A stretch of 47,396 bases of DNA from a virus, in the IMG/VR virus record IMGVR_UViG_3300035228_001740, positions 1 through 47,396 of that record. One strand, given 5' to 3'. The notes under the pieces were generated by a model. It worked only from the letters and a program-made list of their open reading frames with translations. It did not search any database and had not been told where the DNA came from. Of this stretch, positions 7,829 to 36,702 are shown in pieces. How positions within the stretch are numbered: the first letter of the stretch is position 1; each line of letters starts with the position of its first letter. Both the position numbers and the translations under genes were made by a program.

Positions 7829-8181
7829 TATTCGTTATCCGCTAGAATTTGTCCATTAGGACCATATACAGCATAAAAAATATAATCCTCAGGTGTGGTT
7901 ACTGCTGATTGACTAGAGGGGAAAGCATCTTCACAAAACTCTAATGCTTCTTCCACATTGTCATTTACAATGAAATTAAATTCAGATTGCTGTAATGCTG
8001 TAAGAATATCTGTAGGCAATACTAGTCTATATTTTGCTACAGATGCATTAATGGCATCAACATCACTACTACTGTTCCACCCAGTAGAACGTAAGAATAT
8101 CACACTTTTCTCTTGTGTCAGTGCAGACTGACCAATAAAATCGGCAAGATAATCAATATCGTAGTTCGCGTTTAGCTCCAT
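7828..8181 (-). CDS. hypothetical protein (117 aa)
   Basis: The acidic 117-residue protein (MELNANYDIDYLADFIGQSA) has no recognisable motif. It overlaps the end of the oxygenase gene by 29 bases and abuts gene 6968-7828, so all three are likely co-translated. Function unknown. Confidence 0.7.
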   Translation of the reverse strand: MELNANYDIDYLADFIGQSALTQEKSVIFLRSTGWNSSSDVDAINASVAKYRLVLPTDILTALQQSEFNFIVNDNVEEALEFCEDAFPSSQSAVTTPEDYIFYAVYGPNGQILADNE

Positions 8182-8668
8182 TTAACTTCCAAGCAATTGT
8201 TGTTCTTAGTGAGGTGAATGTTCTAGAAACTTCTTCAGCATAATGTTTTCTTTGACCAGGAAAGAATACTGCCTTATTAGGTTCTGGATTCACATAAGTG
8301 TATGTGTTATCACGATTGAAGAAGCATGTTTTTCCTCCCCAGAGATGACTCCATTCAGGATTAGAATAAAGTAGAAAAGTTCTACAATCATCATAATGTC
8401 CATCAACATGTGGTAATGCTTTATCAGCAAATACATGTCCATTGGCATAGACACGCTCTAACACAAGATCTGGTTCATTTGTGACATCTCTTATAATATT
8501 TAGTAAATAGTCATTAAAGAATTCACTATCGTTCAATTCCATTTGCCAAAATGGTATGCCACTAGTGGGAGATACAGAACCATGACCATACATCCATTTT
8601 GGTTCTGCCATTGTTTTCAAAATTTCCATGAAATCAATATCACTGAACACATTATTATAAATCTCCAT
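8153..8668 (-). CDS. 2OG-Fe(II) oxygenase
   Basis: Members of this superfamily use 2-oxoglutarate, O2 and Fe(II) to hydroxylate proteins or small molecules. The 171-residue protein shows the facial triad: ALPHVDGH (H87, D89) with a distal histidine at RKHYAEE (H142), and an arginine 13 residues later (SLRTTIAW, R155) to bind 2-oxoglutarate. The core strand order fits the double-stranded beta-helix fold. It overlaps the next oxygenase gene by 14 bases. The target is unknown. The location beside fibre genes suggests tail-protein hydroxylation, but nothing in the sequence proves it. Confidence 0.82.
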   Translation of the reverse strand: MEIYNNVFSDIDFMEILKTMAEPKWMYGHGSVSPTSGIPFWQMELNDSEFFNDYLLNIIRDVTNEPDLVLERVYANGHVFADKALPHVDGHYDDCRTFLLYSNPEWSHLWGGKTCFFNRDNTYTYVNPEPNKAVFFPGQRKHYAEEVSRTFTSLRTTIAWKLNGAKRELRY

Positions 8669-9326
8669 ATTCCCTCATAAAGTTTGCTCTAATCTGTTCA
8701 AATGGAAGGAATACCTCATCATTATCGGGAAATGCTTTCATTCCTTTAATAATAGAATTAGATAAGTCTATCAATTGATATCTTAAGAAACTCTCACGAA
8801 CTATACTACTTCCCCACATAAGTGCAACTCGTCTTCTCCCTGAAATAACAGGTTCTACATGATGTAGCAATCCTGTAGGATATATTAAGGCAGTTCCTGC
8901 TTTGCACTTATAAGCATATTCTTGATCTCCAAACCTAACAACTAATTGCCCACCTTCGTACTCATCAGGAGAACTTAAAAATAAACTAATACTATGATGA
9001 GTAGTGAGTCCTGATATCTTTATATCATCAATATGTTTATCATAAAAACCTCCTTCACGATATTCAGAAAAAATAGGAACAGTTAAGTCCTTAAACATAT
9101 ATGTTGCTGAGAACTCATTGCAATCTTTCAATGCAGTGTTCACAATGTCTAATGATTTCCTAAATTGTGAAGAAGTTTGTTCCATTGCGAAACTCTTCTT
9201 TTGAGTTTCGTCTACATCATTATGACCTCTTTTGCTAACTAGTCCTTGTCTTACTGGTGCTAGATCGAATAAGTCATTGATATGTTTCACATTTTTTTCA
9301 TTAAGTATCTCACATTCATAAATCAT
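8655..9326 (-). CDS. 2OG-Fe(II) oxygenase, PKHD-type hydroxylase-like
   Basis: The 223-residue protein resembles PiuC/YbiX-type prolyl-hydroxylase-fold enzymes. YDKHIDD gives H98 and D100, GLLHHVEPV gives the distal His (155 or 156), and SGRRRVALMWGSSIVR supplies the 2-oxoglutarate-binding Arg and the family's typical WxxSxVR ending. EYEGGQLVV in the core is also characteristic. The N-terminal part matches the usual capping helices. It overlaps the next oxygenase by 14 bases and follows the tail-chaperone-like gene by 3 bases. Confidence 0.85.
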   Translation of the reverse strand: MIYECEILNEKNVKHINDLFDLAPVRQGLVSKRGHNDVDETQKKSFAMEQTSSQFRKSLDIVNTALKDCNEFSATYMFKDLTVPIFSEYREGGFYDKHIDDIKISGLTTHHSISLFLSSPDEYEGGQLVVRFGDQEYAYKCKAGTALIYPTGLLHHVEPVISGRRRVALMWGSSIVRESFLRYQLIDLSNSIIKGMKAFPDNDEVFLPFEQIRANFMREYGDL

Positions 9327-9329
9327 ATT

Positions 9330-10271
9330 CTATTCCTCTTCTTCGGTAAACAAGTTAATATCGAAATCTGGATATATTGCTTCAATATCCATTGACTTAA
9401 TAATATCAAGAAAATCTTTCTTGATTTGTCTAGCAGTAGATGCTCGCTGTCTGGTATATACCAATTTATTAATCATTCTATTATTAAGGAAATCGGATGA
9501 TGCATCATCATCATAATTTGTCCACTGATCAGCATCATTAGCATCCATATATGCAGGTGCATCAGTTACACCATCTGCCAATTTACCATTTGGATATAGT
9601 TTAAGATAGTTTTTAGGATCAATAGGAAATACATTTTCATATAAACTTTTCATGAAGTCTAATGTAGTATCATAAGTATCAGGATTAGGCATAGCAACAG
9701 ATCTAATCTTTACTCTCCAATCAATCCAACGCTGCTTCTCGCCTTCGTAACTATCATCAACATCAGGAAGAACACGCCAGTCAGATGCTGACAGAATCAT
9801 ATTTTTCTCTCTAAGTCTCTTAAACCACTTTGCCTCAACAAAAGCATAGTCTTTGTCGAAAGCTTCAAGTTTTTTCTTTGCAGCAATATTCTTAACAGCA
9901 GTTTGAATAAGGAATATTGCTGTTCCTAAATTATATACTGCTTTTGCCTGTTCTGCATTACCCCCTTTAAACTGATAGTCATTCCAATACACAGAATCTG
10001 AACCAAAGTCATATTTCTGTCTATTACGTTGAGCATAATATGTGCCATCATTATAATAAGCAAAAAATTGTAACTCATCCTCCGCTGTGTGCCAAAAAGA
10101 ATCAATTTTAGAAAAGAATTCTGCAATTAATTCATCAGAAACTTGTGCTTTAAGTAAACTTGAAGGGTTGATAATTAATGCATTTTCTGCAGGAGCAATT
10201 AAAATATTTTTATTCACCAAATCCATTTGAAGGATGGGTTTTCTTACTAAAGTATCTGTAGATGAAGTCAT
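9330..10271 (-). CDS. virion/tail protein with phage tail-assembly-chaperone-like domain
   Basis: The central part (about residues 148-225) reads RLREKNMILSASDWRVLPD, then a spacer, WIDWRVKIRS and PNPDTY. This matches the pattern of the Phage_tail_APC domain (SDW, LPDV, W..YR..LR, FP..P) found in tail-fibre assembly proteins and fibre C-termini. The first 140 residues and the acidic C-terminus (ending LFTEEEE) are not recognised. It lies between two oxygenase genes, two bases from one. The domain and position suggest a role in assembling or capping a fibre. The domain call is by eye. Confidence 0.65.
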   Translation of the reverse strand: MTSSTDTLVRKPILQMDLVNKNILIAPAENALIINPSSLLKAQVSDELIAEFFSKIDSFWHTAEDELQFFAYYNDGTYYAQRNRQKYDFGSDSVYWNDYQFKGGNAEQAKAVYNLGTAIFLIQTAVKNIAAKKKLEAFDKDYAFVEAKWFKRLREKNMILSASDWRVLPDVDDSYEGEKQRWIDWRVKIRSVAMPNPDTYDTTLDFMKSLYENVFPIDPKNYLKLYPNGKLADGVTDAPAYMDANDADQWTNYDDDASSDFLNNRMINKLVYTRQRASTARQIKKDFLDIIKSMDIEAIYPDFDINLFTEEEE

Positions 10272-10272
10272 A

Positions 10273-10995
10273 CTAGTTAAGGTGTGTTTTTATATACCAT
10301 CCTGTCAAAATATATTTATCACCTTTTAGCACCATGTTTCCTTTATGAACATGGGTATATCCTGCAGGGAAGATAACAACTGTTCCTTTAGTGGGACGAA
10401 TACGTTTTAATTGGTACATAAATTCTGTTTCTCCACCACCATCTTCTTCTAGATCATTAAGGTAAATCATCCAAACAACTTCTCTCTGGGCATGTGATGC
10501 AGCAGAGTTTTCATAATGCCAAGCATGATATCCACCACCTGGAGATGTTCTCTGTACTTTGATATCAGTAGATATCATAGGAACTTGCTTTAATTGACCA
10601 AATTCACTCATATAATGTTTTAAGCAAGATTTCAAATATTGATTGGTTTGATATGTTAAACCATCATTACAATAATTTGCAAGAAGGGACTTGTCCTTTC
10701 TATTCATATTACTATAATATTGCATCTCACCATCTATGAGAGTACTTGATGCATCATCTATATTTGTAGGTCCAAAAGATTCTTCAAAATCACTAGGGTC
10801 GATAGTAGAACCACCACCACCTTCTGATATATGATCAAACCATTTTACAACTTGATCACAAAATGATTCTGGAACAAAATTTTCCCATATACCAATAAAA
10901 TCGTCACATTTAAAATCTGTTATCTTGGAGTCTCTCATTAATTCTAACGGACGCCACTCTTGTACACCCTTACTTGGATTAGTTCCTGGTTTCAT
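10273..10995 (-). CDS. 2OG-Fe(II) oxygenase, prolyl-hydroxylase-like
   Basis: The 240-residue protein has the core GGGYHAWHYENS (H160 with E162 in place of the usual Asp), the strand MIYLNDLEEDGGGETEF, RPTKGTVVIFPAGYTHVH (distal H215 or H217), and GDKYILTGWY with a Lys as likely 2-oxoglutarate binder. This is the standard order for P4H-type enzymes, and HxE variants are known. Enzymes of this type are common beside cyanophage tail genes. It starts 14 bases after the stop of the collar fibre gene. Confidence 0.86.
   Translation of the reverse strand: MKPGTNPSKGVQEWRPLELMRDSKITDFKCDDFIGIWENFVPESFCDQVVKWFDHISEGGGGSTIDPSDFEESFGPTNIDDASSTLIDGEMQYYSNMNRKDKSLLANYCNDGLTYQTNQYLKSCLKHYMSEFGQLKQVPMISTDIKVQRTSPGGGYHAWHYENSAASHAQREVVWMIYLNDLEEDGGGETEFMYQLKRIRPTKGTVVIFPAGYTHVHKGNMVLKGDKYILTGWYIKTHLN
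10313..10320 (-). promoter_or_regulatory. possible late promoter box
   Basis: GATAAATA on the minus strand fits the T4-like cyanophage late motif NATAAATA, 42 bases before the ATG of gene 9330-10271. It lies inside the coding end of the oxygenase gene, so it may be chance. Confidence 0.35.
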
Positions 10996-11008: not shown

Positions 11009-14000
11009 TTAATATGCCTTTATTATATATTTGATTTTATGGAAGGGAGTTACGACAGGAACTTTACGTTGAGGATCTAAACTTGCAGTTGGAATTGGTT
11101 TAGTTGAGTTATTCCATGTAAATATCCCCTCATTTAGTTCAATTTGAACTTCACTTTGATTAAAGATTACATCTGTATTGAGTCCAAAGTTTGCCAATCC
11201 TTGCTTATATGCAAGTCCAGCACCATTAACATTACCGAAAGTATAATCTAAATTAGGATTTAATACAGGATCTTGACCAAGTAAATGTGAGTGAGTTAAC
11301 GTTCCATAAATTGATTGATAAGAATCAATTCTTCCTCTACCTTCTTCTGTATCAATTACGCCAGCATCTGAGGGAGTTCCTGATCCAGAAAAATGTTGAG
11401 CTATAGTTCCTGGTACTAAAGCTTCGAGGTTTGACACTGGAGATCCCCAATAATTACCAAATGAAACAGTACTTTCACCATTTCCGGGTAATAAATCTTC
11501 TGCATCGCCAAGATCACTCTTAGAAACTTGACTACTAAAATCAGCAAATCCATCTCTCCAATTCAACAAACTTGTCCAATATCCATCATCAACTGCATCA
11601 TCCTTATCATCATCCTGATTTTGTCCCGTTGATCCAGATTCTGATACATTAGTTCTGTAATATGCATATGTGAACCAAGGGATACAAGGATCTCCACCAT
11701 CTCCCTCAGGTTTTCCTGTAACTAGTACATGTTCATGCTGAGGAACTTGTACCGTTACACTACTAACTGGACCAATTGTTGCAGCAACAGAACCTGTAAT
11801 AAGAAATGGAACATCAGTTGTTACGAGTTCTGTTCCAAATGTTCTTGGAGTTCCTAATGTAAAGTATTCCGATTCTGTTCCTGAAGTTGATCCTGCAGGA
11901 GCAATAACTTGTTCCTCTGGATCAGGACCAGCAACATCTACATCATCAACAAACCACCATCCACCAGTAGATCCAGGTTCTTCAAAAGTACCACCAGGAC
12001 TAGTTACTGGAACAATAGCAGATGATCCTCTGTTGGAATCCACTCTACCCGCACCAACCAATCTAACATTACGATAGTCAGGTACATTAAAATTACCACT
12101 ATATGTTTTAGTTGCCGAAACATATACAGCACTTCCACCATATTGATTACCAATTGAATTCCATAACCATGGATAATCTGCTGCAGCATATGATCCACCA
12201 TCACAAGGCAAGAATCCGGGGAATCTATCCTCAATAGAACCATATCCAAAATTATTTCCCGAGGTAGCAATTGCTTCTTTAGGAACAGGTAAAATAGTTC
12301 CTAATGCATAACCATCAAATTTGGGTGCTCTGTAGTAGGATGCTGCATTATTAGGATCTTCTCCTGCTGCGATCCATCCATCCTCATCAAAAGATTCATT
12401 TTTATTAGAATACCACACCGATTTATATGCTGGTGGGATAGGTTTTACAGCATAATTAATTGATCTAAGTTGAAAAGAAGATGCATCACCAAAAGTAATA
12501 TTAGTTTGTCCATAATTAGATAATCCAAGAACAGGATCTAGGTCAGCATTTCCTGGTTGCTGCATAATGATAGTGACAAACACTGGATCACCACCAGGAT
12601 CAGGATTAGCTGTTACTGGTCCAACAATTGCTGGTCCACCATTTACAGAGAATAAAACATTTCCTATGTTCTCACCTGTAGCAAAATTAAATTCATTAAA
12701 TGATTGAGGTGCAGTAGCACTCAGTGTAATCGGTAAATTAAAATCTGTCAACCCTATTGGACCAATAACACTATTGCCTCCGGGAGTTCTATTAATAACT
12801 TGAGTGATAGGAGTAAATGATGGTGTAGTATCTGGTGCCGTCCAATTTGTAACACTCCATGTAGGTATAATCGAATTCCCTACATTTATTCCCATTGATG
12901 CAATTCCTTGTCCAGGAATAGTGAAATCAAACACATCACTAGATCCATTCAAAACTAATTCAATAGTATCACCATTCTCTACATTGATATTAGAAACAGT
13001 ACCAGAAGATCCACCATTAATACTAATTCTGGGACTATATTGAGATGTTGTGTCTGAAGATCTTAGTGTAACTGGAACAGTAGTGTTAGGTGTTAACCCA
13101 GCAACCAATGCAATACCGCTACTAACACTACCACTTGCAGTAGATTTTATATTTACTTGACCAGGAACTTGTTCTACTAAATTATTAAAGACAAAACTAT
13201 TTGGTATTGTATCAATACCATTACCTGTTGTGACATTCCATCCAGAAATACCAGCACCATCCCCAACAGTAACATTATAAGTTTTAAGGAAATTTGTTTG
13301 AGTAGTAGTAGTTGCTCTTAGTTGTACATATTGACCATTACTTACTGTTAAATTATTTCCCCATCCAGACACAATATTAGATAAGACATCAAATCCATTT
13401 GTATTGGTAAATGTACTATTACTATTAGATACTGCAACCTGCGCTCCACCATCAACACTTATAGTAGCACTAGTTGTGAGTCCTAGAATTTGAGGTCTTG
13501 CACTATAAACTAAAGCATTAATTTCTTGATTATTTAAACTACCAAAATTAGGTGCTGGATTTGGTGTATTAATAGGAATAGTGCCAGTGGTGATCTCCCA
13601 TTTCGCATCTCCAGTACCAATACTAACACTGACATCTTTTTTATCAGCTGGTGCTGCAGAAGATCTTAACCTGAGTTGAATTTGATCAAAGTTACTGACT
13701 GTTACATTTACAGCTTTTGTCCATGCACCCCAAGAACCATAAGAACTAGTTCCATTATCGTATATTCTTAATCTATAGTCATAATCATTAGGATCAACGA
13801 CATTAGATGTTACTAACAAGGGTGCTTGTGTACTAGTATCAAGACCTGTAACAGTAACAACTTGCTCTCCTTGTCTTAATGCAGCAGCATCTGTTGATAA
13901 TCCAGTATAAGGATCTGCGTTTGGACCATTAGCAGTTTCAGCAAAAGTAAATAATGTATCTACTTCAACATCTTCAATATTTTGAAAGAAGAACGGATCA

Positions 14001-14170
14001 GGTTCAAAATCTTCTATTCTAGTTTCAATAATCCAAAATACAGTAAGTTCGCCAATATTAATGGTAACTTGTACAATTTCAGAAAATCCACCAGGTGCTT
14101 CATAACGAAACTGGATAGATTGATTCTCTTCAACATACAGCGGTGATGAACTATACTCGTATATCGGCAT
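11009..14170 (-). CDS. long tail fibre protein with collar domain
   Basis: The 1053-residue structural protein has an N-terminal half built of about four beta-rich repeats of roughly 100 residues, each with an NGD/VSNGQ-type turn, an L-R-S/A-T strand and a V-x-V-G-x-G step. A phage tail collar domain follows at about 620-700 (GTILPVP, later FLPCDGGSY, then NFNVPDYRNV). The C-terminal region has two HxH motifs (QHEHVL and LTHSHLL) and ends in a typical collar-protein tail (HKIKYIIKAY). It probably forms a trimeric fibre at the baseplate that contacts the cell surface. A late promoter box lies 27 bases upstream. Confidence 0.82.
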   Translation of the reverse strand: MPIYEYSSSPLYVEENQSIQFRYEAPGGFSEIVQVTINIGELTVFWIIETRIEDFEPDPFFFQNIEDVEVDTLFTFAETANGPNADPYTGLSTDAAALRQGEQVVTVTGLDTSTQAPLLVTSNVVDPNDYDYRLRIYDNGTSSYGSWGAWTKAVNVTVSNFDQIQLRLRSSAAPADKKDVSVSIGTGDAKWEITTGTIPINTPNPAPNFGSLNNQEINALVYSARPQILGLTTSATISVDGGAQVAVSNSNSTFTNTNGFDVLSNIVSGWGNNLTVSNGQYVQLRATTTTQTNFLKTYNVTVGDGAGISGWNVTTGNGIDTIPNSFVFNNLVEQVPGQVNIKSTASGSVSSGIALVAGLTPNTTVPVTLRSSDTTSQYSPRISINGGSSGTVSNINVENGDTIELVLNGSSDVFDFTIPGQGIASMGINVGNSIIPTWSVTNWTAPDTTPSFTPITQVINRTPGGNSVIGPIGLTDFNLPITLSATAPQSFNEFNFATGENIGNVLFSVNGGPAIVGPVTANPDPGGDPVFVTIIMQQPGNADLDPVLGLSNYGQTNITFGDASSFQLRSINYAVKPIPPAYKSVWYSNKNESFDEDGWIAAGEDPNNAASYYRAPKFDGYALGTILPVPKEAIATSGNNFGYGSIEDRFPGFLPCDGGSYAAADYPWLWNSIGNQYGGSAVYVSATKTYSGNFNVPDYRNVRLVGAGRVDSNRGSSAIVPVTSPGGTFEEPGSTGGWWFVDDVDVAGPDPEEQVIAPAGSTSGTESEYFTLGTPRTFGTELVTTDVPFLITGSVAATIGPVSSVTVQVPQHEHVLVTGKPEGDGGDPCIPWFTYAYYRTNVSESGSTGQNQDDDKDDAVDDGYWTSLLNWRDGFADFSSQVSKSDLGDAEDLLPGNGESTVSFGNYWGSPVSNLEALVPGTIAQHFSGSGTPSDAGVIDTEEGRGRIDSYQSIYGTLTHSHLLGQDPVLNPNLDYTFGNVNGAGLAYKQGLANFGLNTDVIFNQSEVQIELNEGIFTWNNSTKPIPTASLDPQRKVPVVTPFHKIKYIIKAY

Positions 14171-14196: not shown

Positions 14197-14204
14197 GTAT
14201 TTAT
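14197..14204 (-). promoter_or_regulatory. late promoter box
   Basis: The minus strand carries GATAAATA, matching the T4-like cyanophage late motif NATAAATA, 27 bases before the collar-fibre ATG. It overlaps the stop of the preceding adhesin gene (TGATAAATA). Confidence 0.65.
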
Positions 14205-15010
14205 CACATTGGTCGAACATTGTTCCAACTTGATTCAATGTCTGGATCGGCATTATCAAATCGAACCTGAATTGGTTCATTTGCTGTAATTTCTACAGCA
14301 ACATCAATATCAGTAACTATAAGTGGATCACTAAGTACTGTCTCGAAATTCGGCGCTTCTACATCATCAGAAGGAGTTTCTTCCGTATTATTTGGAACAT
14401 TAACATTATCAGGCAACTCGTCAACAATAACATTAATATTACTTGGCACATTAACAGCACCTCCACCACCGCTAGCAGTTAATGATAACGCAATATTAAA
14501 TGCCCCAAATGAGGTCCATGGAATATTAGGTGTAAATGTATTTGTTACAGCAGCACCACTTTCATCCGATGCTGTTCCTGGTAAACTAATATTTTGAGTA
14601 ATAGTAGTTGTATTTCCATTACTAGGGTTTTTCATAGTGTAAACTGCTGTTCCGTTAACCCCACCTGTTGCATATCTGTATGTTATAGGGTAACTTTGGG
14701 TCGTATCACCATAATCAATATTTGCTGGAGTACTATAACTTAGTTGAGGTATTTGATTTACATTTACAGTAATAGTATCAGAATCGCTACCACCTGGACC
14801 ACTAGCAGCTAAAGTATAAGTTGTACTACTAGATGGGGAAACTGGTTTACTACTACTAAACAGAACATTACCAACTCCCTGATTAATAGTAGCAGGAGTA
14901 GTGGCAGAACCAGTAACGACCCAGGTTAACGTTGATGTTTGACCAACAGTAATAGGGTTTGGAGATGCACTAATGAATTGAGCAACAACAGGTTGATATA
15001 CAGTTAAATT
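14204..15010 (-). repeat. duplicated adhesin 3' half, copy 1
   Basis: This segment is very similar at DNA level to 15713-16515 and more distantly to 17458-18260. It encodes the shared Ig-like domain (YQPVVAQFISASPNPITVGQ onward) and the common C-terminal domain. Long near-identical stretches with mostly third-position changes indicate fairly recent duplication or gene conversion. Confidence 0.85.
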
Positions 15011-15706
15011 TACAGTCTGACTATTACTAGTGATTCCATAGTAGGATGCATTTAATGTATAGGCTGTATTAATACTGGGAGATACTGTAATACCACCAGG
15101 AGGACTTGAAGAACCAACACTTCCTTGACCTGTTAGAGTTCGTGATGTGGAATTAGAAACCGACCAAGTTAATTTAGCAGATCCAGGTGCAATATAACTA
15201 TTAGGACTAACATTTAAAACGATACCTGGCGTAGGATATACACAAGTTCCATTATCAACATCTGCGCTTGCATTATAATTTGAAGCACGAGAGTCTGTAC
15301 ATCCAGGAACAGGTGGGGGAGGAATAAATCCAACCCAATCTATAGCAATACCCCAAGGTCCACCACCACTATTATTAGCATTAGCACTAAGAGTATATGT
15401 TCCTGGTCCATAATAATTTGTGGTAGTGACTAAACTTTGCGTTCCAAATCCACCCATTCCCATTTCATAATTGCCATTAATATAAATTGCACCATTATCA
15501 TCACAATTGGCATAGAATCGTTGTCTACCATAATTTGCAAAAGTGATAGTCCAATAATAAAATCTATTGAGACCAGGAGTGCCACTGGCGTCGGCACCAC
15601 CAATATTATATCCGTTCATGAAACCAGACCAGTTTGGCTCAAAATACTGGCCAGTAAAACCTGCACTATTAGGAGATCTACTTGTAAAACTAGAGTCTTG
15701 TGTCAT
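14204..15706 (-). CDS. tail adhesin paralogue 1: jelly-roll-like head plus Ig-like stalk
   Basis: In 500 residues, the N-terminal part to about 130 resembles a PA14 or galactose-binding beta-sandwich (RFYANCDDNGAIYINGNY; later GTYTLSANANNSGGG). A Pro linker and a GCTDSRASNYNASADVDNGT module (135-154) follow, of the Cys-Asp-x-x-Ala-x-Asn-Tyr type seen in marine surface proteins. Residues 160-330 are two Ig-like domains. The last 170 residues are shared with the next two genes (DELPDNVNVPNN, later ETVLSDP and ANEPIQVRF). The gene overlaps a late promoter at its stop. It probably forms a host-binding fibre part, inferred from architecture. Confidence 0.75.
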   Translation of the reverse strand: MTQDSSFTSRSPNSAGFTGQYFEPNWSGFMNGYNIGGADASGTPGLNRFYYWTITFANYGRQRFYANCDDNGAIYINGNYEMGMGGFGTQSLVTTTNYYGPGTYTLSANANNSGGGPWGIAIDWVGFIPPPPVPGCTDSRASNYNASADVDNGTCVYPTPGIVLNVSPNSYIAPGSAKLTWSVSNSTSRTLTGQGSVGSSSPPGGITVSPSINTAYTLNASYYGITSNSQTVNLTVYQPVVAQFISASPNPITVGQTSTLTWVVTGSATTPATINQGVGNVLFSSSKPVSPSSSTTYTLAASGPGGSDSDTITVNVNQIPQLSYSTPANIDYGDTTQSYPITYRYATGGVNGTAVYTMKNPSNGNTTTITQNISLPGTASDESGAAVTNTFTPNIPWTSFGAFNIALSLTASGGGGAVNVPSNINVIVDELPDNVNVPNNTEETPSDDVEAPNFETVLSDPLIVTDIDVAVEITANEPIQVRFDNADPDIESSWNNVRPM

Positions 15707-15712
15707 TTTATT

Positions 15713-16515
15713 TTATATCGGTCTAACGTTGTTCCAATTTGCTTCAATGTCTGGGTCATCATCATCAAATCGAACTTGAATTGGTTCATTTGCTGTAATT
15801 TCTACAGCTACATCAATATCAGTAATTGTAATAGGATCACTAAGTACTGTCTCAAAATCAGGTGCTTCTACATCATCTGAGGGAGTTTCTCCCATATTAT
15901 TTGGAATATTTATAGAATCAGGTAACTGGTCAACAATAACGTTGATATATTTTGGTATATTAACAGAACCTCCGCCACCACTAGCAGTTAATGATAACGC
16001 AATACCAAATACCCCATATGATGACCACGGAATATTTAAAGTAACAGATGATGTTACAGCAGCACCACTTTCATCTGATGTTGTTCCTGGTAAACTAATA
16101 TTTTGTATACTAGTAAAAGTAGCACCAGTAGCAGGATTTGTTATCGAATACAACGCGGTTCCGTTAACTCCACCTGTTGCATACCTATATGTTACATCAA
16201 AAGTAACAGAATCTCCATAATCGATATTTACCGGAGTACTATAACTTAGTTGAGGTATTTGATATACTACTACGGTGATTTGATCTGAATCACTACCGCC
16301 TGGACCACTGGCAGCTAAAGTATAAGTTGTACTACTAGATGGCGATACACTTTTTGCACTACTAAACAGAACATTACCAACTCCCTGATTAATAGTAGCA
16401 GGAGTATTAGCACTACCTGTTACAACCCAAGTTAATGTTGATGATTGTCCAACAGTAATAGGGTTTGGAGATGCACTGATAAATTGAGCAACAACAGGTT
16501 GATATACAGTTATAG
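15713..16515 (-). repeat. duplicated adhesin 3' half, copy 2
   Basis: This copy is nearly identical over long stretches to 14204-15010. It encodes the same Ig-like domain and C-terminal domain, while the sequence upstream in the two genes is unrelated. A third, more diverged copy is at 17458-18260. Confidence 0.85.
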
Positions 16516-17458
16516 ATGCACTTGCAGAATCATTACCACCTGAACCAATAGCAGTTATTGTATAAGTCCTGCTAGTAGGTGGATTTATGGTAGTAGAACC
16601 AGATACACCTACTGCTCCAATACCTTGATTAATGCTTTGAGATGTAGAATCGCTTACAGACCAAGACAAAGTTGCCTGAGTGACACCCGCAATTATACTA
16701 CTAGGAGAAATTGTAAAACTATTAACTTCAGCAATTATTATTGTATAATAAAGGATAGCATAACCCTGTCCACCATTCTCACCTTGACTACTGATAGATA
16801 CAAGACCATTATTATATCTTGAAGTTCCACCTCCACCGCCGCCACCGCCGAAACTATTGTCTTCACCAGCACCGCCGCCACCGCCACCAGTGTGACCACC
16901 GCCACCACCGCCGCCTCCGCCGCCGTCTCCACCACCTTTATTTCCACCAGCGCCGCCATTACCAGCTGATACTCCACCAGTAGACCAACCTCCAGCGGTG
17001 CTAGCGTTACCACCGGCTCTATTAAGAGATCCACCTCCACCACCGCCGCCGCCTCCGGCATTAACAGCTACTGAACCATTAAGATAAAAATATGAGCAAG
17101 CACCTCCACCTCCTCCACATCCAGACCATCCACTAGTTCCATCATCACCACCTTTACCACCATCGCCGTTACCTACAACGCTTCCACCATTTCCACCTAC
17201 AGCTGCTCCAGTTCCGCCAGGACCAGTGGCACCTTGAGTGCCAGGAAGTAATGAAAAACTACGATTAGAACTGCTTGTAGGAATACTAAAAACACCAGTT
17301 CTCCCGTTTCCATTACTTCCTCCTGGTCCGCCACCATCAAAACCTCCACCGCCACCACGAGCACCACCAATACTTAATTGTATATTAACAGCACCTCCAG
17401 GAAGAGTGCCATTTGTGCCACTATATCCACCGGTTATTTGAACGTTTTGTGATGACAT
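15713..17458 (-). CDS. tail adhesin paralogue 2: glycine-rich head plus Ig-like stalk
   Basis: In 581 residues, positions 1-225 form a glycine-rich sheet-like domain with long Gly runs (for example GGARGGGGGFDGGGPGG). Such domains appear in T4-like gp38-type adhesins, where stacked polyglycine helices bear receptor-binding loops. Ig-like domains follow (NSFTISPSSIIAGVTQ; YQPVVAQFISASPNP), then the same C-terminal domain as the flanking paralogues (ETVLSDPITITDIDV). Unlike gp38, the Gly-rich part is at the N-terminus. It is separated by 6 bases from paralogue 1 and shares its start base with the stop of paralogue 3. High GC in the Gly region reflects GGN codons. Confidence 0.75.
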   Translation of the reverse strand: MSSQNVQITGGYSGTNGTLPGGAVNIQLSIGGARGGGGGFDGGGPGGSNGNGRTGVFSIPTSSSNRSFSLLPGTQGATGPGGTGAAVGGNGGSVVGNGDGGKGGDDGTSGWSGCGGGGGACSYFYLNGSVAVNAGGGGGGGGGSLNRAGGNASTAGGWSTGGVSAGNGGAGGNKGGGDGGGGGGGGGGHTGGGGGGAGEDNSFGGGGGGGGTSRYNNGLVSISSQGENGGQGYAILYYTIIIAEVNSFTISPSSIIAGVTQATLSWSVSDSTSQSINQGIGAVGVSGSTTINPPTSRTYTITAIGSGGNDSASASITVYQPVVAQFISASPNPITVGQSSTLTWVVTGSANTPATINQGVGNVLFSSAKSVSPSSSTTYTLAASGPGGSDSDQITVVVYQIPQLSYSTPVNIDYGDSVTFDVTYRYATGGVNGTALYSITNPATGATFTSIQNISLPGTTSDESGAAVTSSVTLNIPWSSYGVFGIALSLTASGGGGSVNIPKYINVIVDQLPDSINIPNNMGETPSDDVEAPDFETVLSDPITITDIDVAVEITANEPIQVRFDDDDPDIEANWNNVRPI

Positions 17459-18260
17459 TAGTCTATTATCTCTCTAACGTTTTTCCAATTTGCTTCAATG
17501 TCTGGATCATCATTATCAAATCGAACCTGAATTGGTTCATTTGCTCTAATTTCTACTGGTATATCTATATCAGTAATTGTAATCGGATCGCTAACTGCTG
17601 TTTCAAAATCAGGTGCTTCTACATCATCAGAAGGAATTTCGTCTAGACTATCTGGAATATTAACAGCATCAGGCAACTGATCGATATAAACAAGTGTTTG
17701 AGGACTTATTACTGGAGAAATAGATCCTCCACAACCATTTGCAAATAGTGTCCATTGAATAGTAAGAGGACCAAAATCGTCCCATGGTATATTGGGACTA
17801 AAAGTTACTGTCGATGAAACATTTGTTTCGTCACTAATACTAGGAGGGAAATTATATGTAACAGATGATGTTACTGCATTAACCCCAGTAAATGTACCTA
17901 TAGCACCAGCAGCTCCAGCAGCATTAGCATATGTTATTTCAGTACTAATAGTATCACCATAATTAATATTTACAGGAAAATTTCCAGAAATTTGAGGACT
18001 TTGACAAACCTGCACTGTTACTTGGTCAAAATCAGAACCACCTGGACCATTAGCAGATAGAGTATAAGTTGTACTAGTAGTTGGCGACACACTAGCAGAA
18101 CTACTAAGAAGAACTGTTCCAGTTGCATTAACAGCAGGAGAAATTGTTGCTATATCAGCACTACCCGATACAACCCAAGTTAATGTTGATGATTGACCAA
18201 CACTAATAGGGTTTGGGGATACACTAACAAATTGGGCATCGGTTGGTTGATAAACAGTTA
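17458..18260 (-). repeat. duplicated adhesin 3' half, diverged copy 3
   Basis: This is the third copy of the shared Ig-like domain (YQPTDAQFVSVSPNPISVGQ onward) and common C-terminal domain. It is recognisably related to 14204-15010 and 15713-16515. The extreme 3' end is the best conserved. The middle has diverged at protein level. Confidence 0.75.
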
Positions 18261-19320
18261 TTCCTACACTTTTAGTAGTAGTTGCTCCACCAATACCACC
18301 TTCATTATCAGCAGTTAAAGTATAGTTTGTTGACAACGTAGGACTAACTTGGATAGAACCTGTACCTACTCCAGAAGAATTAAATGTTGTACTGGATAGA
18401 ACACTACCAATTCCTTGGTTAATATCAATAGATGTAATATTAGTTCCACTAACTGTCCAAGATAATACAGCGAGTCCTGGACTAATATAAGATGACGGAC
18501 TAACTGAAAATACTACAGTTGGTGGTGGTGGTGGTAAAACTTGAACCTGTACATTTTTTGATGATGATCCTACTGGTCCAACTGCTGTTAAAGTATAAGT
18601 TGTTGTTGCTGTTGGACTTACAGTTATAGTTCCAGATGGGTCAGAAACTGCTCCTACTCCACCATTAATACTTGCGCTAGTAGTATCTCCAAACACAATC
18701 CAAGATAATGTAGTAGACCCGTTAAATGGTATCTGAACTATACTATCTACATTAAAATTTGTTAGAAAATTTGGATCTCCAGAGAAAGATGCGCTTGGTA
18801 GAAAATCAGTACGTTGATCTTGAGACCATCTCTCACCTTGATCACTCTCTTCAAAAACAATATTAATACCAGCTGCAGCACATCGTTGAAAGAAATAATT
18901 ATATGATGCTAGTACGGTACTCTTTTTCATCGAACCCGAAATATCTAACCACAATGACACATAAGATCCAGGTGGTTGAGAATCTAGATTACAAATAGCA
19001 TACCAATCAGATCTATTTGCAACACTACCATTATCTCTGTTAACTGTAACTGTATGCGTTAAAGAATCACTGATGTAATTTGATGGTCTTAATAGGTCAG
19101 GAAAAGTTCTACCTGGTTGTAACAACCAAAACTCTCTACCATTGCCTCCATTATTAGGATATTCTGCTCTAAATCTATTCCAATCATGCTGAATAACTTG
19201 AGCACTACTAGAATAACTACCTGGATATCCTGCTTCTGGATTATTATTATAGTTATTTCTTGCCTGGTTACCTATCGATTCATCGATAATCGATATGCAT
19301 TGAGTTCTTGGTAATACCAT
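17458..19320 (-). CDS. tail adhesin paralogue 3: VWA-like segment plus Ig-like stalk
   Basis: In 620 residues, the first 110 residues are unrecognised (MVLPRTQCISIIDESIGNQA). Residues 120-165 look like the start of a von Willebrand factor A domain: SYVSLWLDISGSMKKSTVL with the MIDAS motif DISGS (126-130), the following helix, and the next strand AGINIVFEE. The rest of a full VWA domain is missing. Four Ig-like repeats follow, each ending in Thr-Tyr-Thr-Leu-type strands (TTYTLTAVGPVGSSS and similar), then the shared C-terminal domain (AVSDPITITDIDIPVEI). It is the most diverged of the three paralogues. A MIDAS site would bind a divalent metal and a ligand; that role is inferred. Confidence 0.75.
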   Translation of the reverse strand: MVLPRTQCISIIDESIGNQARNNYNNNPEAGYPGSYSSSAQVIQHDWNRFRAEYPNNGGNGREFWLLQPGRTFPDLLRPSNYISDSLTHTVTVNRDNGSVANRSDWYAICNLDSQPPGSYVSLWLDISGSMKKSTVLASYNYFFQRCAAAGINIVFEESDQGERWSQDQRTDFLPSASFSGDPNFLTNFNVDSIVQIPFNGSTTLSWIVFGDTTSASINGGVGAVSDPSGTITVSPTATTTYTLTAVGPVGSSSKNVQVQVLPPPPPTVVFSVSPSSYISPGLAVLSWTVSGTNITSIDINQGIGSVLSSTTFNSSGVGTGSIQVSPTLSTNYTLTADNEGGIGGATTTKSVGITVYQPTDAQFVSVSPNPISVGQSSTLTWVVSGSADIATISPAVNATGTVLLSSSASVSPTTSTTYTLSANGPGGSDFDQVTVQVCQSPQISGNFPVNINYGDTISTEITYANAAGAAGAIGTFTGVNAVTSSVTYNFPPSISDETNVSSTVTFSPNIPWDDFGPLTIQWTLFANGCGGSISPVISPQTLVYIDQLPDAVNIPDSLDEIPSDDVEAPDFETAVSDPITITDIDIPVEIRANEPIQVRFDNDDPDIEANWKNVREIID

Positions 19321-19329
19321 TTTTTAACC

Positions 19330-20214
19330 TCAAATTTTAATGATGTATGTAACAATAATAAATGGCGTTACCACTTCATTAAATGCATTAATGTTTTCAA
19401 CAGAAACGTTAAGTGTTGTATTTACATTATCTGCAGGGATTGGGAAATTTACATGAGAATAAGCAAAACTAGATGAATATGTAATTGGTTTGCCAATTTT
19501 ATGAGCATGTTGAGAAAGTGAAGATGTGTTTAAATTACTTACTTCAAGTTCATTACCAGATCCACTATTTGCACTCTGCTGACCATTATCTTTACCATCT
19601 CCACCTGTTTGATGATTTGCTGTAAAGTTTAAAACATTTGTATTAGAATTATGAGCATGACCTTGAAAATTTTCAATGTCTAACAATGTGCTAGTTGATT
19701 GGGTATCAAAAGAATATTTTGGATTAGATTTCATAGCATAATTTGTTAATACCGGTATCCCTTCAAAATTACCAAGAAAGTCACATGTTAACTGAGTTCC
19801 TTCATTACATATAACTTCAACAGCAGGACCAACTCTAGTTTCGTCAGTATCTCCAACAAAAATATTTAAATAATCGCCTGTCGATCTGTTGGGTGTAACA
19901 ACTTTAGATCCCAAATCAGGTAATTGAAATTGACCTAAATCACCTGTATCTTCATCTGGTTCTCTTAGTACCACATTATCTTTTTTAAACTTACAATTGG
20001 TTCCAACACCAATTACTTGAGATAATGCATAAAAATCTGAAGCATTTTTAACGCTGCCATCACATTTTAAAAATCCACCTGGTATATTATCAATAAAATC
20101 CGAAGAATTTGGATCATTAGTATTTGAAATATATGGTGTAGAATGAACTTGAATGGATCCTATGTATCCACCAAATTTTGCTCTTACTTGTGAATAATTG
20201 TTATTTAATGCCAT
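19330..20214 (-). CDS. short tail fibre protein with collar domain
   Basis: The 294-residue protein has a collar domain at its N-terminus (IPGGFLKCDGSVKNASDFYA at 44-63, FQLPDLGSKV later), two HxH motifs (FQGHAHNS and LSQHAHKIG), and the typical collar-protein end VTPFIIVTYIIKI. T4 gp12 and cyanophage homologues of this shape form trimeric short fibres at the baseplate that fix the phage to the cell. The gene lies 9 bases after the stop of adhesin paralogue 3 in map order and 2 bases from the next collar gene. Confidence 0.82.
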   Translation of the reverse strand: MALNNNYSQVRAKFGGYIGSIQVHSTPYISNTNDPNSSDFIDNIPGGFLKCDGSVKNASDFYALSQVIGVGTNCKFKKDNVVLREPDEDTGDLGQFQLPDLGSKVVTPNRSTGDYLNIFVGDTDETRVGPAVEVICNEGTQLTCDFLGNFEGIPVLTNYAMKSNPKYSFDTQSTSTLLDIENFQGHAHNSNTNVLNFTANHQTGGDGKDNGQQSANSGSGNELEVSNLNTSSLSQHAHKIGKPITYSSSFAYSHVNFPIPADNVNTTLNVSVENINAFNEVVTPFIIVTYIIKI

Positions 20215-20215
20215 T

Positions 20216-21913
20216 TTAATATGCTCTGATTACGTAAACACAAGTCATTCCAGGTTGAGTAGTATTGAAATTAATTTGGAATACTCCGACATTTCGTGCA
20301 TTATCTAAACTTAAATTAGCATTAGGTGCAGTAACATACACGTTTAATGTATTTAATGGTCTCAAACCTGATAATTCAAAATTAACATCAAATTCATCAT
20401 GACTATGTGATTGAATTGTATCTTGCACACCACCACTTGGCACCTCTTTAGTAAAATCCCAACCAGGATTACTATTTAAAGTGTCATAAGATACAAATGA
20501 AGTGGGTGATGCTAAACCGGACAATGATCCTCCCGCATATTCTACTAAGTCTGGATAAAAATTAGTTTGTCCTGTTGAAATATTTAAAAGATTTCCTCCT
20601 TGCCCATATGCAACTGTTCTTGCTTCTCCTTGACCTGCATTAAATCCTGTAATACCACCAGATATTGCATTACCACTATAAGCTGTACTAGTGCCAGTAA
20701 AAGTTCGTAAATTTTGCGATTGAGTTAATTCTGCTTTAATAGGATTCCAAATAACATTTTTTGGAGTCCAGTTAACTGGAGGATTTTCCGCATTAATTCC
20801 AGCTACTGTTCGTCCTGGTTGTCCACCACCAAAACCATTTTCACCTCTATCATAATCACTCATTTCATATTCTACAATAAAACGATTATCATCAGTAATA
20901 AAAATATCATCATCAGATGTCTCAACTTGAGCATTAAAAGTATAAGTTAAATTACTCCAAGGAACAACACCCTCTCCTGGTTGAGATTGAGGAGTTGCTT
21001 TAATTGTTTCAATATTACCACTATGACTATGAGTTTTAACATGTCCCCTACCTAATTTTCTAGGTCCAAAATAGCATATTTTGGAAAATTGACCGGAACC
21101 TTCAACAATAGTATTTCCTGATAATTTTCCACTATAAAAGTAACTAAGAGATCCACTATCGCCACCTGAAGTAAATGTTCTTTCATTTAACTCAAATACT
21201 ACATCAGTAGCAACATCATTGAAAGAAGTAGGTACACCAACATCAGTATTCACTCCAATATATGGTACAACTTCAGATATTGCATCAGCTTGTTGGTCAA
21301 ATGCTCTTTGAGTAGGAGTTGCCGGACCAAAATAATTAATTTCTTGATCAACTAAAGGTCTATTAATTAATGCAGGAAGTACAATCTCTCCTAGATAATT
21401 TGGAAATTGTCCTTGAAATGTAGATACCGATCCTTGCTCTACAGAATTAATAGTAACACTAATATCAGAACCATTACCAGAATTTCCACTCGGAATAGTT
21501 AAAATATCTCCTGGCAAATAGTTAATTCCTTGCTGCAGCAAAGCAACAGTGACTGAACCTCCAACACCATTAGGAGCGCCACCCCCAGTTGTTCCTTGGT
21601 CTGCCACTACAATAGAAAAAGTTGCACCGGCACCACTACCATTATCTGGAGAAGAAGTATATATTCCAGGAGTTCTACCAGTTTCAATTGATGCACCAGA
21701 AGAAAAACTAAGGATTAACCCTTCAGTAACTGCTGTAGAAAGATTATATGTATCTCCAATTGCTCTTGCTAACAGAGGGAAATCACCAGCAGATATTAAT
21801 GTTCCATCACAAGGAATCCACCCATCGGGGATATCTGATATACCCCCAGTCCATGGCATAATTGTTCCTATGGCAGCTGCCTTAGCAGTCTTGATTTCTT
21901 GATAGAATGACAT
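20216..21913 (-). CDS. tail fibre protein with N-terminal collar domain
   Basis: In 565 residues, IGTIMPWTGGISDIPDGWIP and CDGTLISAGDFPLLARAIG (16-55) are a clear collar domain. A Gly/Ser-rich insertion (SNPDNGSGAG-like region, 87-150) and LGEIVLPALINRP follow. The C-terminal half has two HxH motifs (VKTHSHSGN and IQSHSHDEF) and ends in TCVYVIRAY. It is probably a trimeric fibre. The insertion with NGxGGS repeats resembles ones seen in other cyanophage collar proteins. It starts 4 bases after the giant gene's stop. Confidence 0.82.
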   Translation of the reverse strand: MSFYQEIKTAKAAAIGTIMPWTGGISDIPDGWIPCDGTLISAGDFPLLARAIGDTYNLSTAVTEGLILSFSSGASIETGRTPGIYTSSPDNGSGAGATFSIVVADQGTTGGGAPNGVGGSVTVALLQQGINYLPGDILTIPSGNSGNGSDISVTINSVEQGSVSTFQGQFPNYLGEIVLPALINRPLVDQEINYFGPATPTQRAFDQQADAISEVVPYIGVNTDVGVPTSFNDVATDVVFELNERTFTSGGDSGSLSYFYSGKLSGNTIVEGSGQFSKICYFGPRKLGRGHVKTHSHSGNIETIKATPQSQPGEGVVPWSNLTYTFNAQVETSDDDIFITDDNRFIVEYEMSDYDRGENGFGGGQPGRTVAGINAENPPVNWTPKNVIWNPIKAELTQSQNLRTFTGTSTAYSGNAISGGITGFNAGQGEARTVAYGQGGNLLNISTGQTNFYPDLVEYAGGSLSGLASPTSFVSYDTLNSNPGWDFTKEVPSGGVQDTIQSHSHDEFDVNFELSGLRPLNTLNVYVTAPNANLSLDNARNVGVFQINFNTTQPGMTCVYVIRAY

Positions 21914-34947: not shown

Positions 34948-34952
34948 CACCA

Positions 34953-35033
34953 TGCCTATGAAAGGACTCGAACCTTCATGCTAATAGCACAAGTTCCTAA
35001 GACTTGCGTGTCTACCAATTCCACCACATAGGC
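34953..35033 (-). tRNA. tRNA-Leu (anticodon UAG)
   Basis: The acceptor stem GCCTATG/CATAGGC pairs fully. The D-arm has GGTGGAATTGGTAGACAC, the anticodon loop is CTTAGGA with anticodon TAG, a long variable arm (TGCT/AGCA stem) marks it as class II, and the T-arm is GGTTCGAGTCC. CCA is not encoded. It reads CUA-type leucine codons. Confidence 0.92.
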
Positions 35034-35079
35034 AAAAGGGGCGCTGCTTCTAAATGCAGATCTTTTGTACTCCCCTTTA
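35034..35079 (-). other. structured spacer between tRNAs, possible terminator or processing hairpin
   Basis: On the minus strand AAAGGGG (35070-35076 region) can pair with CCCCTTTT next to tRNA-Leu, enclosing an inner CTGC/GCAG hairpin. The GC stem followed by TTTT could act as a weak terminator, or as a cleavage guide for tRNA processing. No tRNA can be folded from it. Confidence 0.4.
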
Positions 35080-35152
35080 AGCCACTCACAGGACTTGAAC
35101 CTGCGACCTGAGCTTTACAAAAGCCCTGCTCTACCAGCTGAGCTAGAGTGGC
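35080..35152 (-). tRNA. tRNA-Thr (anticodon UGU)
   Basis: The acceptor GCCACTC/GAGTGGC, D-arm AGCTCAGCTGGTAGAGCA, anticodon stem GGGCT/AGCTC with loop TTTGTAA (anticodon TGT) and T-arm GCAGGTTCAAGTCCTGT all pair. CCA is not encoded. It begins one base after the stop of cpeT, so it is likely processed from the same transcript. Confidence 0.93.
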
Positions 35153-35153
35153 A

Positions 35154-35675
35154 TTATTTTACAAAAGTGAATTGACCATGTGTACTGCCCCAAACCTGTT
35201 GATTTGTTTCAGGATCAAATCCTTTATCTTCTACATTATACCACCCATTACCCAAAATTGCAGAATTTTCAAGATATGTATTGTTTTCACCTTGTTTTAC
35301 GATACAATTACATCCTTCCTGAATTTTACCTACGTAAGAATTATTTTCCCACTTAAATATTGTATCACATCCTTCTTTATATGTCAAATGATTTTCGTTA
35401 AAATTCTCATTTAATTTTTGAAATCCACGAAACGATATTTTATTTGGATGATCAAAATTTTTCACGATAATACTATTATCTTTTTCTGATATATGAATAA
35501 AAAATTGACGATATGGCGTTAAAGTTTTATTAAAGTATGCTTGCTCTCCATAAAAAATATTATCAGTAATTTTTTTATGTTGTACTACAATATATGCATA
35601 TCGAGAAGGATAGGTAAATGCTTGTATTTTATTATTAAATTTACCTTCAAACCATTCTAAAAAAGTTTCAATCAT
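35154..35675 (-). CDS. cpeT: CpeT/CpcT-type phycobilin lyase-like protein
   Basis: This is a host-derived auxiliary metabolic gene. T-type lyases attach phycobilin to a cysteine of phycobiliproteins or, in phage versions, may handle bilins in other ways. The 173-residue protein has the family pattern: FLEWFEGKFNNKIQAF at the start, TYKEGCDTIFKWENNSYVGK in the middle (98-117), CNCIVKQGENNTYL (122-135), and the diagnostic GFDPETNQQVWGSTHGQF near the end. Length fits the family. The start overlaps the upstream gene by 8 bases and the stop is one base from tRNA-Thr. It strongly points to a cyanobacterial host with phycobilisomes or relics of them. Confidence 0.9.
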   Translation of the reverse strand: MIETFLEWFEGKFNNKIQAFTYPSRYAYIVVQHKKITDNIFYGEQAYFNKTLTPYRQFFIHISEKDNSIIVKNFDHPNKISFRGFQKLNENFNENHLTYKEGCDTIFKWENNSYVGKIQEGCNCIVKQGENNTYLENSAILGNGWYNVEDKGFDPETNQQVWGSTHGQFTFVK

Positions 35676-35937
35676 CTTGTGGTAATAATTGTGGATCGTT
35701 TATTGCAATGTCAAATACTAATGGATGACATTCTTCTTCAATTAAATATGAAGAATATAGATATAAATCATCCATATCCCAATCTTTTCCTTCTAATGCT
35801 TCAGTTTGAATCGAAGGATGATCTTGGATTATGGGCGGCAACTCGTCAAATGTATAAGGAATATTTTGAATGAAATACATTCTTACCACATTCCCTTCTA
35901 AAAAACAATACCTTTGTGAGAGAATATATGGAGTCAT
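35668..35937 (-). CDS. hypothetical acidic protein (89 aa)
   Basis: The 89-residue acidic protein starts MTPYILSQRYCFLEGNVV, with a C-terminal DPQLLPQDD. It overlaps cpeT by 8 bases, so the two are coupled, and a late-type promoter box lies 21 bases upstream. No family is recognised. A role linked to CpeT is possible only by position. Confidence 0.6.
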   Translation of the reverse strand: MTPYILSQRYCFLEGNVVRMYFIQNIPYTFDELPPIIQDHPSIQTEALEGKDWDMDDLYLYSSYLIEEECHPLVFDIAINDPQLLPQDD

Positions 35938-35957
35938 TTAACTTTTGCAGTCTGAAA

Positions 35958-35965
35958 TATTTATT
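35958..35965 (-). promoter_or_regulatory. possible late promoter box
   Basis: AATAAATA on the minus strand fits NATAAATA and lies 21 bases before the ATG of gene 35668-35937. Its TAA is the stop codon of the upstream oxygenase gene. Confidence 0.45.
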
Positions 35966-36599: not shown

Positions 36600-36615
36600 A
36601 ATTACAAATTAACAA

Positions 36616-36699
36616 TGCGAGAAGGGGGACTTGAACCCCCACGAGATTGCTCTCAACAGATTTTAAGTCTGGTGCGTCTACCGATTCCGCCACACTCGC
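36616..36699 (-). tRNA. tRNA-Leu (anticodon UAA)
   Basis: A class II tRNA: acceptor GCGAGTG against TTCTCGC with one mismatch and one wobble, D-arm GGCGGAATCGGTAGACGC, anticodon stem CAGA/TCTG with loop CTTAAAA (anticodon TAA), long variable arm, and T-arm GGGGGTTCAAGTCCCCC. CCA is not encoded. Confidence 0.92.
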
Positions 36700-36702
36700 A
36701 GA

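What the first reader, a model, noticed from the sequence alone, without database searches (positions are those of the whole stretch)
14204..19320. Three tandem adhesins share one C-terminal half but have unrelated N-terminal heads
Genes at 14204, 15713 and 17458 end in the same roughly 270-residue region (Ig-like domain plus a domain with ETVLSDP and ANEPIQVRF). Their heads are different: jelly-roll/PA14-like, glycine-rich, and VWA-like. Most phage fibres vary at the C-terminus while the N-terminus is anchored; here the constant part is C-terminal. Copies 1 and 2 are almost identical at DNA level, which indicates recent duplication with head replacement. This could be a modular receptor-recognition cassette in which the C-terminus docks on the virion.
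Basis: partly seen in the sequence, partly recalled or inferred. Interest (0 to 1): 0.72.

Follow-up and report, generated by a model that had tools for sequence, protein, structure and literature searches.

The report
Swappable heads on shared phage anchor
A marine cyanobacterial virus carries three neighbouring genes whose proteins share one C-terminal end but have unrelated front ends, and comparison with dozens of relatives shows that the front ends are swapped like tool bits while the shared end stays with the virus, probably as the plug that holds them on its tail.

Summary
Three tandem genes (19320-17458, 17458-15713, 15706-14204, all minus strand) of a T4-like marine cyanophage (Kyanoviridae-type) share about 270 C-terminal residues after a short Ig-like stalk, and have unrelated heads: alpha/beta with a DxSGS motif, Gly-rich, and PA14-like. 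The copies are not 'almost identical' (73-89% DNA identity), and the closest relative has the same three heads, so the duplication is not recent. In 56 distinct complete cassettes from isolates and IMG/VR, all lying between the tail-collar gene and the next short-tail-fibre gene, the C-terminal unit is terminal and lineage-specific. At least seven head classes occur on it. Heads 80-89% identical sit on C-termini only 33-41% identical. Conversely, near-identical phages differ by a whole head: two S-RIM44 isolates with 98-99% identical flanks keep only the last ~87 residues of the middle protein. AlphaFold folds head and stalk confidently but not the last ~70 residues. The best-supported reading is a modular adhesin set on the tail, with exchangeable N-terminal heads and a C-terminal lineage-specific dock. 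Modularity is shown; docking and receptor binding are inferred. T4 Hoc and tentaclins have a similar architecture, so this is a new variant of a known kind.

The parts
17458..19320 (-). Gene a, 620 aa: head with DxSGSM (VWA/MIDAS-like, residues ~1-193) + Ig-like repeats + C-terminal unit
   Evidence: repeats and C-terminal unit; AlphaFold model; phrog_2155 E 1.4e-173
18742..19320 (-). Head a (alpha/beta, invariant D126-S128-G129-S130-M131)
   Evidence: A3 alignment; secondary structure; head found in 35 phage records
17461..18276 (-). C-terminal unit of gene a (residues 349-620)
   Evidence: HMM hit 349-618
15713..17458 (-). Gene b, 581 aa: Gly-rich head (residues ~1-241) + Ig-like repeat + C-terminal unit; its ATG overlaps the stop of gene a by 1 nt
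   Evidence: phrog_2155 E 3.1e-170
16736..17458 (-). Head b (Gly-rich, 41% Gly)
15716..16528 (-). C-terminal unit of gene b (residues 311-581)
   Evidence: HMM hit
14204..15706 (-). Gene c, 500 aa: PA14-like beta head (residues ~1-136) + Cys linker + Ig-like repeat + C-terminal unit
   Evidence: AlphaFold model pLDDT 85.6
15242..15706 (-). Head c with linker: the exchanged DNA module (75-92% to ACG-2014j and S-CAM4 from the start codon to the head/stalk junction, then 40-60%)
14207..15022 (-). C-terminal unit of gene c (residues 229-500)
   Evidence: HMM hit
14207..14416 (-). Terminal ~70 residues of gene c (proposed dock): low-confidence in the monomer model
   Evidence: pLDDT ~48-75 from residue 431; same in gene a from ~552; within-genome homogenised
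15716..15928 (-). Terminal ~70 residues of gene b (proposed dock)
   Evidence: 86-87% DNA identity to genes a and c over the last 180 nt
17461..17673 (-). Terminal ~70 residues of gene a (proposed dock)
   Evidence: pLDDT <53
19330..20214 (-). Tail collar protein, upstream border of the cassette
   Evidence: phrog_4714 E 2e-135
20216..21913 (-). Short tail fibre protein with Collar domain
   Evidence: PF07484 4.9e-10, phrog_4591
11009..14170 (-). Second short tail fibre protein (STF2), downstream border of the cassette; its homologues carry a domain resembling the proposed dock
   Evidence: phrog_4924
9330..10271 (-). Tail assembly chaperone
   Evidence: phrog_4697 5.9e-106

Best explanation
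The three genes encode a set of tail-borne adhesins built from interchangeable parts. Each has an N-terminal head, a stalk of 1-6 Ig-like repeats and one C-terminal unit that ends in a ~70-residue tail without a stable fold of its own. Heads (DxSGS alpha/beta, PA14-like, several Gly-rich kinds, DUF4114, DUF4214-like, DUF5648) are replaced by homologous recombination. One crossover lies at or near the start codon or in the preceding gene. The other lies at the head/stalk junction or inside the conserved C-terminal unit, which serves as a landing platform. The terminal tail is lineage-specific and kept similar among the paralogues of one phage, as expected if all copies must fit one shared attachment site on that phage's tail tip or baseplate, possibly the short tail fibre proteins encoded on either side. 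Shown: modularity, exchange, constant C-terminus, locus, Ig stalk, unfolded tail in the monomer prediction. Inferred: C-terminal docking on the tail, and heads binding cell-surface molecules and so influencing adsorption.
For: Locus: 56 distinct cassettes with the C-terminal unit, all between collar and STF2, in a tail/baseplate region. C-terminal unit within 10 residues of the protein end in 197 of 201 distinct proteins. Exchange between lineages: 30 genome pairs with heads >=70% but C-termini <=45% identical; a sharp DNA drop at the head/stalk junction; 5 against 2 changes on trees. Exchange within lineages: S-RIM44 isolates L015/L002 with flanks 97.8% and 98.7%, whole middle head replaced, identity resuming 260 nt before the stop; S-RIM32 against L050; L002 against L033; 12 of 18 genome pairs with collar >=90% have at least one missing or <50% head match. 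C-terminus follows the phage, not the head: at collar identity <0.6 it is 0.36 identical whether the head family is the same or different; within-genome paralogues have more similar tails than same-head orthologues in 45 of 45 genomes at collar 0.30-0.55. Models. Ig stalk. In S-PM2d coevolution, the flanking genes S-PM2d218, 219, 220 and 224 (mapped) acquired mutations (PMC9910659).
Against: No direct evidence places these proteins on the tail rather than the capsid, nor shows any head binding a host. PHROGs files phrog_2155 under 'head and packaging'. The cassette is absent in ACG-2014h and S-H9-1, so it is not essential across the family. Fused genes keep internal, non-terminal copies of the tail, so a free C-terminus is not needed. 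The S-PM2d paper's text names no mutation in the three cassette genes S-PM2d221-223.
Confidence: 0.72

Rival explanations
1. Hoc-like capsid decoration: the C-terminal unit binds the capsid and the Ig stalk with head projects from the head shell, binding cells, polysaccharide or particles rather than the infection receptor.
For: [quoted passage not shown] phrog_2155 carries the category 'head and packaging'.
Against: In all 56 cassettes the genes sit between tail-collar and short-tail-fibre genes, next to a tail assembly chaperone. The only non-cassette proteins resembling the dock with any consistency are the neighbouring STF2 fibres.
Confidence: 0.14
2. The C-terminal unit is a folding or oligomerisation module (trimerisation or intramolecular-chaperone type), not a dock. 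It is constant because any head needs it to assemble, while attachment is through some other part.
For: C-terminal chaperone domains that are swapped between unrelated fibres are an established theme (own knowledge). The unit does not fold fully as a monomer.
Against: No Peptidase_S74 or other known chaperone domain at E<=1. The tail is lineage-specific and homogenised within genomes, which fits a phage-specific partner better than a generic folding module.
Confidence: 0.2
3. Reverse polarity: heads anchor each protein to a different virion site and the shared C-terminus recognises the host.
For: In most characterised fibres the C-terminus recognises the host (own knowledge).
Against: Heads move between phages whose collar proteins are only ~45-48% identical, which is unlikely for virion anchors. 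Head classes include domains typical of bacterial surface proteins (DUF4114, DUF5648). The C-terminus follows the phage backbone.
Confidence: 0.05

Closest known systems
Tentaclins (gut phage receptor-binding proteins, PMC10743442)
   Different: Tentaclin heads are one kind (C-type lectin, varied by DGR). Here at least seven unrelated head classes are swapped by recombination, with two to six paralogues side by side, and the end of the protein is an unfolded tail after the last Ig-like domain.
T4 Hoc
   Same: Ig-like stalk with a conserved C-terminal virion-binding part (PMC13248984).
   Different: Hoc is one capsid protein; here there are several tail-locus paralogues with exchangeable heads.
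phrog_2155 / T4-LIKE GC 737-739, 1047, 1048 'virion structural protein' (Sullivan et al. 2010, PMC3037559; S-PM2 S-PM2d221-223)
   Same: These are the same proteins, annotated as virion structural proteins; function unassigned.
   Different: In the papers that could be read, the head-swapping organisation was not described.
T4-type short tail fibres / Collar-domain proteins
   Same: Same gene neighbourhood; a weak resemblance of the dock to a domain in STF2.
   Different: No Collar domain (PF07484) in the three cassette proteins.

Membership tests
phrog_2155 virion structural protein | Profile match over most of the protein | tested here: met
   E 1.5e-146, 3.1e-170 and 1.4e-173 for the three proteins
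phrog_2155 virion structural protein | Presence in purified virions | not testable with these tools
   Literature only: S-SM1, S-PM2 and Syn9 proteomes underlie the annotation (PMC3037559); the peptide table for these genes could not be read
T4 Hoc family | Ig-like stalk | tested here: met
   Foldseek and VIA-align: titin, NCAM, GhpA Ig-type chains, Z up to 10.8
T4 Hoc family | Binding to the capsid | not testable with these tools
   No localisation data; gene neighbourhood is tail
Tentaclins | N-terminal C-type lectin head | tested here: inconclusive
   Foldseek lists were filled by Ig domains, so heads were barely tested; no Pfam hit on the heads
Tentaclins | Consensus motif of the C-terminal Ig domain | not tested
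   The motif was not available as a model
Intramolecular chaperone (Peptidase_S74) | Peptidase_S74 domain at the C-terminus | tested here: not met
   No such hit at E<=1
Short tail fibre / Collar proteins | Collar domain PF07484 | tested here: not met
   Absent from P0001-P0003, present in the three flanking proteins
VWA domain (gene a head) | MIDAS DxSxS motif and alternating alpha/beta fold | tested here: inconclusive
   DxSGSM invariant in 21 proteins, alpha/beta model, but no Pfam VWA hit and the strand order places DxSGS late
PA14 (gene c head) | PA14 profile match | tested here: inconclusive
   UniProt calls the S-RIM44 homologue a PA14 domain-containing protein; no Pfam hit here

The most novel reading that the evidence does not exclude
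The paralogues form one multi-headed complex, usually three different heads, held together by their shared C-terminal units. The unfolded tail is an incomplete beta-sandwich that is completed by, or completes, the related domain in the neighbouring short tail fibre STF2: a universal socket for any head. Hints: 38 of 56 cassettes have exactly three units; two genomes fuse all three into one chain with every internal dock kept intact; and STF2 is nearly the only other protein resembling the dock (weak).
Probability: 0.17. Interest if true: 0.8.

Novelty: new variant of a known kind. Interest (0 to 1): 0.62.

Why it matters
Marine T4-like cyanophages lack recognisable T4 long tail fibres, and the review PMC2984593 suggests that unassigned structural proteins stand in for them. 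This cassette is a concrete candidate set. It explains how closely related phages could change what they bind in one recombination step, and it gives a natural experiment: existing S-RIM44 isolates that differ mainly by heads within this cluster. If the C-terminal dock is confirmed, it is a transferable plug whose sequence predicts the phage lineage, while the heads predict binding.

Tried and rejected
Recent duplication of copies 1 and 2: rejected, since L016 has the same arrangement. Fixed head/C-terminus pairs: rejected. Peptidase_S74 chaperone: no hit. PDB sequence search with the C-terminal profile gave only weak Ig-type matches (complement C5, titin). The VWA-gene profile hit titin Ig repeats only, and the PA14-like head gave only chance antibody matches. 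Head folds could not be named by Foldseek or VIA-align because Ig domains filled the lists. tblastn with the Gly-rich head found little because of low-complexity filtering, so its true spread came from the C-terminal search instead. Gene conversion of the tail is clear for the window but not general at short distances: at collar identity >0.85 orthologues are more alike than paralogues. The STF2 resemblance is weak (HMM E about 6e-4 at best; hhalign probability 42%, E 2.6e-4 for one of ~28 tested blocks), so it is a lead only. S-PM2d mutations in 221-223 could not be confirmed: the text names 218, 219, 220 and 224; mutations 61-62, numbered between those in 220 and 224, might lie there.

Full report
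What is there. The window is a 47,396-base IMG/VR virus record. Its structural genes all lie on the minus strand, and phage relatives place it with T4-like marine cyanophages (Kyanoviridae). In order of transcription near the finding: a 4329-aa tail fibre protein, a short tail fibre with a Collar domain, a tail collar protein, three 'virion structural proteins' (620, 581 and 500 aa), a second short tail fibre (STF2, 1053 aa), a 2OG-Fe(II) oxygenase and a tail assembly chaperone.

The observation. The three proteins align over 339-355 residues in their C-terminal parts (71% for copies 1/2, 52% for copies 1/3) and not in their heads. An HMM of the C-terminal unit (267 positions) hits the end of each, preceded by one or two extra copies of its first, Ig-like segment. 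The nearest relative, L016, carries the same three heads in the same order, with 71-98% DNA identity along the genes, so the arrangement is older than their split.

A conserved locus with variable content. tblastn found the C-terminal unit in 49 phage records. IMG/VR scans added further loci. Among 201 distinct proteins the unit ends within 10 residues of the protein's end in 197; most of the exceptions are genes cut by contig ends or fused. Of 57 distinct complete intervals between collar and STF2, 56 hold one to six units; 38 hold three (32 as three genes, four as two genes, two as one fused gene), nine hold two, seven hold four, one holds six and one holds one. One interval, Sf-FR1, has heads of similar type with other C-termini. 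More distant relatives ACG-2014h and S-H9-1 have no gene between collar and STF2, so the cassette is an accessory set within the family.

Head classes. Clustering gave at least seven: DxSGS alpha/beta, PA14-like, Gly-rich of several kinds, DUF5648 (PF18885, 4e-11), DUF4114 (PF13448, 3.4e-4, below its cut-off), DUF4214-like (by motif only) and unassigned.

Heads travel between lineages. Over 46 dereplicated genomes, using collar protein identity as a proxy for the phage backbone, PA14-like heads 80-89% identical occur on C-termini 33-41% identical in phages with collars 45-48% identical. Thirty genome pairs (12 genomes) have heads >=70% and C-termini <=45% identical. DNA alignments of the window's third gene with ACG-2014j and S-CAM4 show mostly 75-92% identity starting at the start codon and ending near the head/stalk junction, with about 30-68% on both sides. 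On the PA14-like head tree the C-terminal type changes at least five times, against two on the C-terminal tree; for DxSGS heads the numbers are three and one.

Heads are replaced within lineages. Two S-RIM44 isolates (KU594607, NC_047734) are 97.8% identical through collar and 98.7% identical from 260 nt before the stop of the middle gene onward. In between, a 628-aa Gly-rich head faces a 152-aa PA14-like head, so only the last ~87 residues of the middle protein are shared at that level. S-RIM32 and L050 differ in about 230 nt of the DxSGS head with ~94.5% flanks. L002 and L033 differ in the first ~227 residues of the middle protein. In 12 of 18 genome pairs with collars >=90% identical, at least one head has no same-family counterpart or one below 50%.

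The C-terminus follows the phage. When collars are below 60% identical, C-termini are 36% identical whether or not the heads belong to the same family. At collar identity 0.30-0.55, paralogues in one genome have more similar terminal tails than same-head orthologues in all 45 genomes; at 0.55-0.70 in 37 of 42; at >0.85 orthologues are more alike. In the window the last 180 nt are 86-87% identical between paralogues (copies 1/2 and 2/3) against 77-84% for the corresponding orthologues of copies 1 and 2 in L016 (80-87% for copy 3). Fused genes keep each internal tail motif intact.

Structure. [quoted passage not shown] The Ig stalk resembles the bacterial grappling-hook protein GhpA, titin and NCAM-type chains. 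The terminal motif, S-x-P-I-x-I-x-D-I-D-I-P-V-E-I, resembles a domain in homologues of the neighbouring STF2. This is weak evidence and is used only as a lead.

Mechanism. The anatomy and the exchange pattern fit a set of adhesins whose heads project and whose C-terminus plugs into a phage-specific site. Heads cross lineages whose virion proteins are only about half identical, which is unlikely for an anchor. The C-terminus does not cross with them. Attachment to the tail is inferred from the gene neighbourhood. Function in adsorption is inferred from head types and from the mutations that flanking genes acquire during S-PM2d-Synechococcus coevolution (S-PM2d218, 219, 220 and 224 are the homologues of the genes flanking the cassette; PMC9910659).

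Comparison with the known. Sullivan et al. (PMC3037559) list such genes only as virion structural proteins needing functional assignment. The review PMC2984593 suggests that unassigned structural proteins account for missing tail fibres. T4 Hoc and tentaclins have the same N-to-C layout: binding domains, Ig stalk, C-terminal anchor. The new element is a cassette of several paralogues with many unrelated, recombined heads on a lineage-specific C-terminus. I did not find this described in the papers that could be searched; subscription papers are not covered.

Limits. Loci were collected by C-terminal similarity, so phages with other C-termini are under-sampled. Collar identity is a one-gene proxy for the backbone. 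Gly-rich heads are low in complexity and their families are approximate. Only monomers were predicted.

Noticed in passing
L014:7182-12144 (Sf-FR1) and L151:4691-11137 (Sf-CH1b): Two sponge-associated Synechococcus phages have heads of similar type at the same locus but with different C-termini; Sf-FR1 c and d share their own ending (NWDVELQNPYGVQIK).
   Followed up: partly
L009:8261-13846, L012:5332-10701, L135:8001-13076, L081:5340-10445: Fused cassette genes carrying two or three heads in one chain, with intact internal docks and a recurrent linker (GTPPYVQGSSVGGNSLP...) after the internal dock.
   Followed up: partly
window 8153-8668, 8655-9326, 10273-10995, 35961-36599: Four 2OG-Fe(II) oxygenase genes around the tail-fibre cluster; the one next to STF2 recurs at that place in most relatives, raising the question whether it hydroxylates fibre proteins.
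   Followed up: no
window 18742-19320: The DxSGS head has its MIDAS-like strand after a first alpha/beta half that begins CISIIDES, as a circularly permuted VWA domain would.
   Followed up: no
window 44166-46286: 706-aa protein with a peptidase/endolysin-like stretch (residues ~490-617) next to the baseplate hub genes.
   Followed up: no
L006/L050, gene c codons ~12-88: In S-RIM32 and a near relative only part of the DxSGS head is replaced, so exchange can also occur inside a head.
   Followed up: partly
window 34952-36775: Four tRNA genes (Leu, Thr, Leu, Met) upstream of the 4329-aa fibre gene; S-PM2d has a tRNA cluster at the matching place.
   Followed up: no
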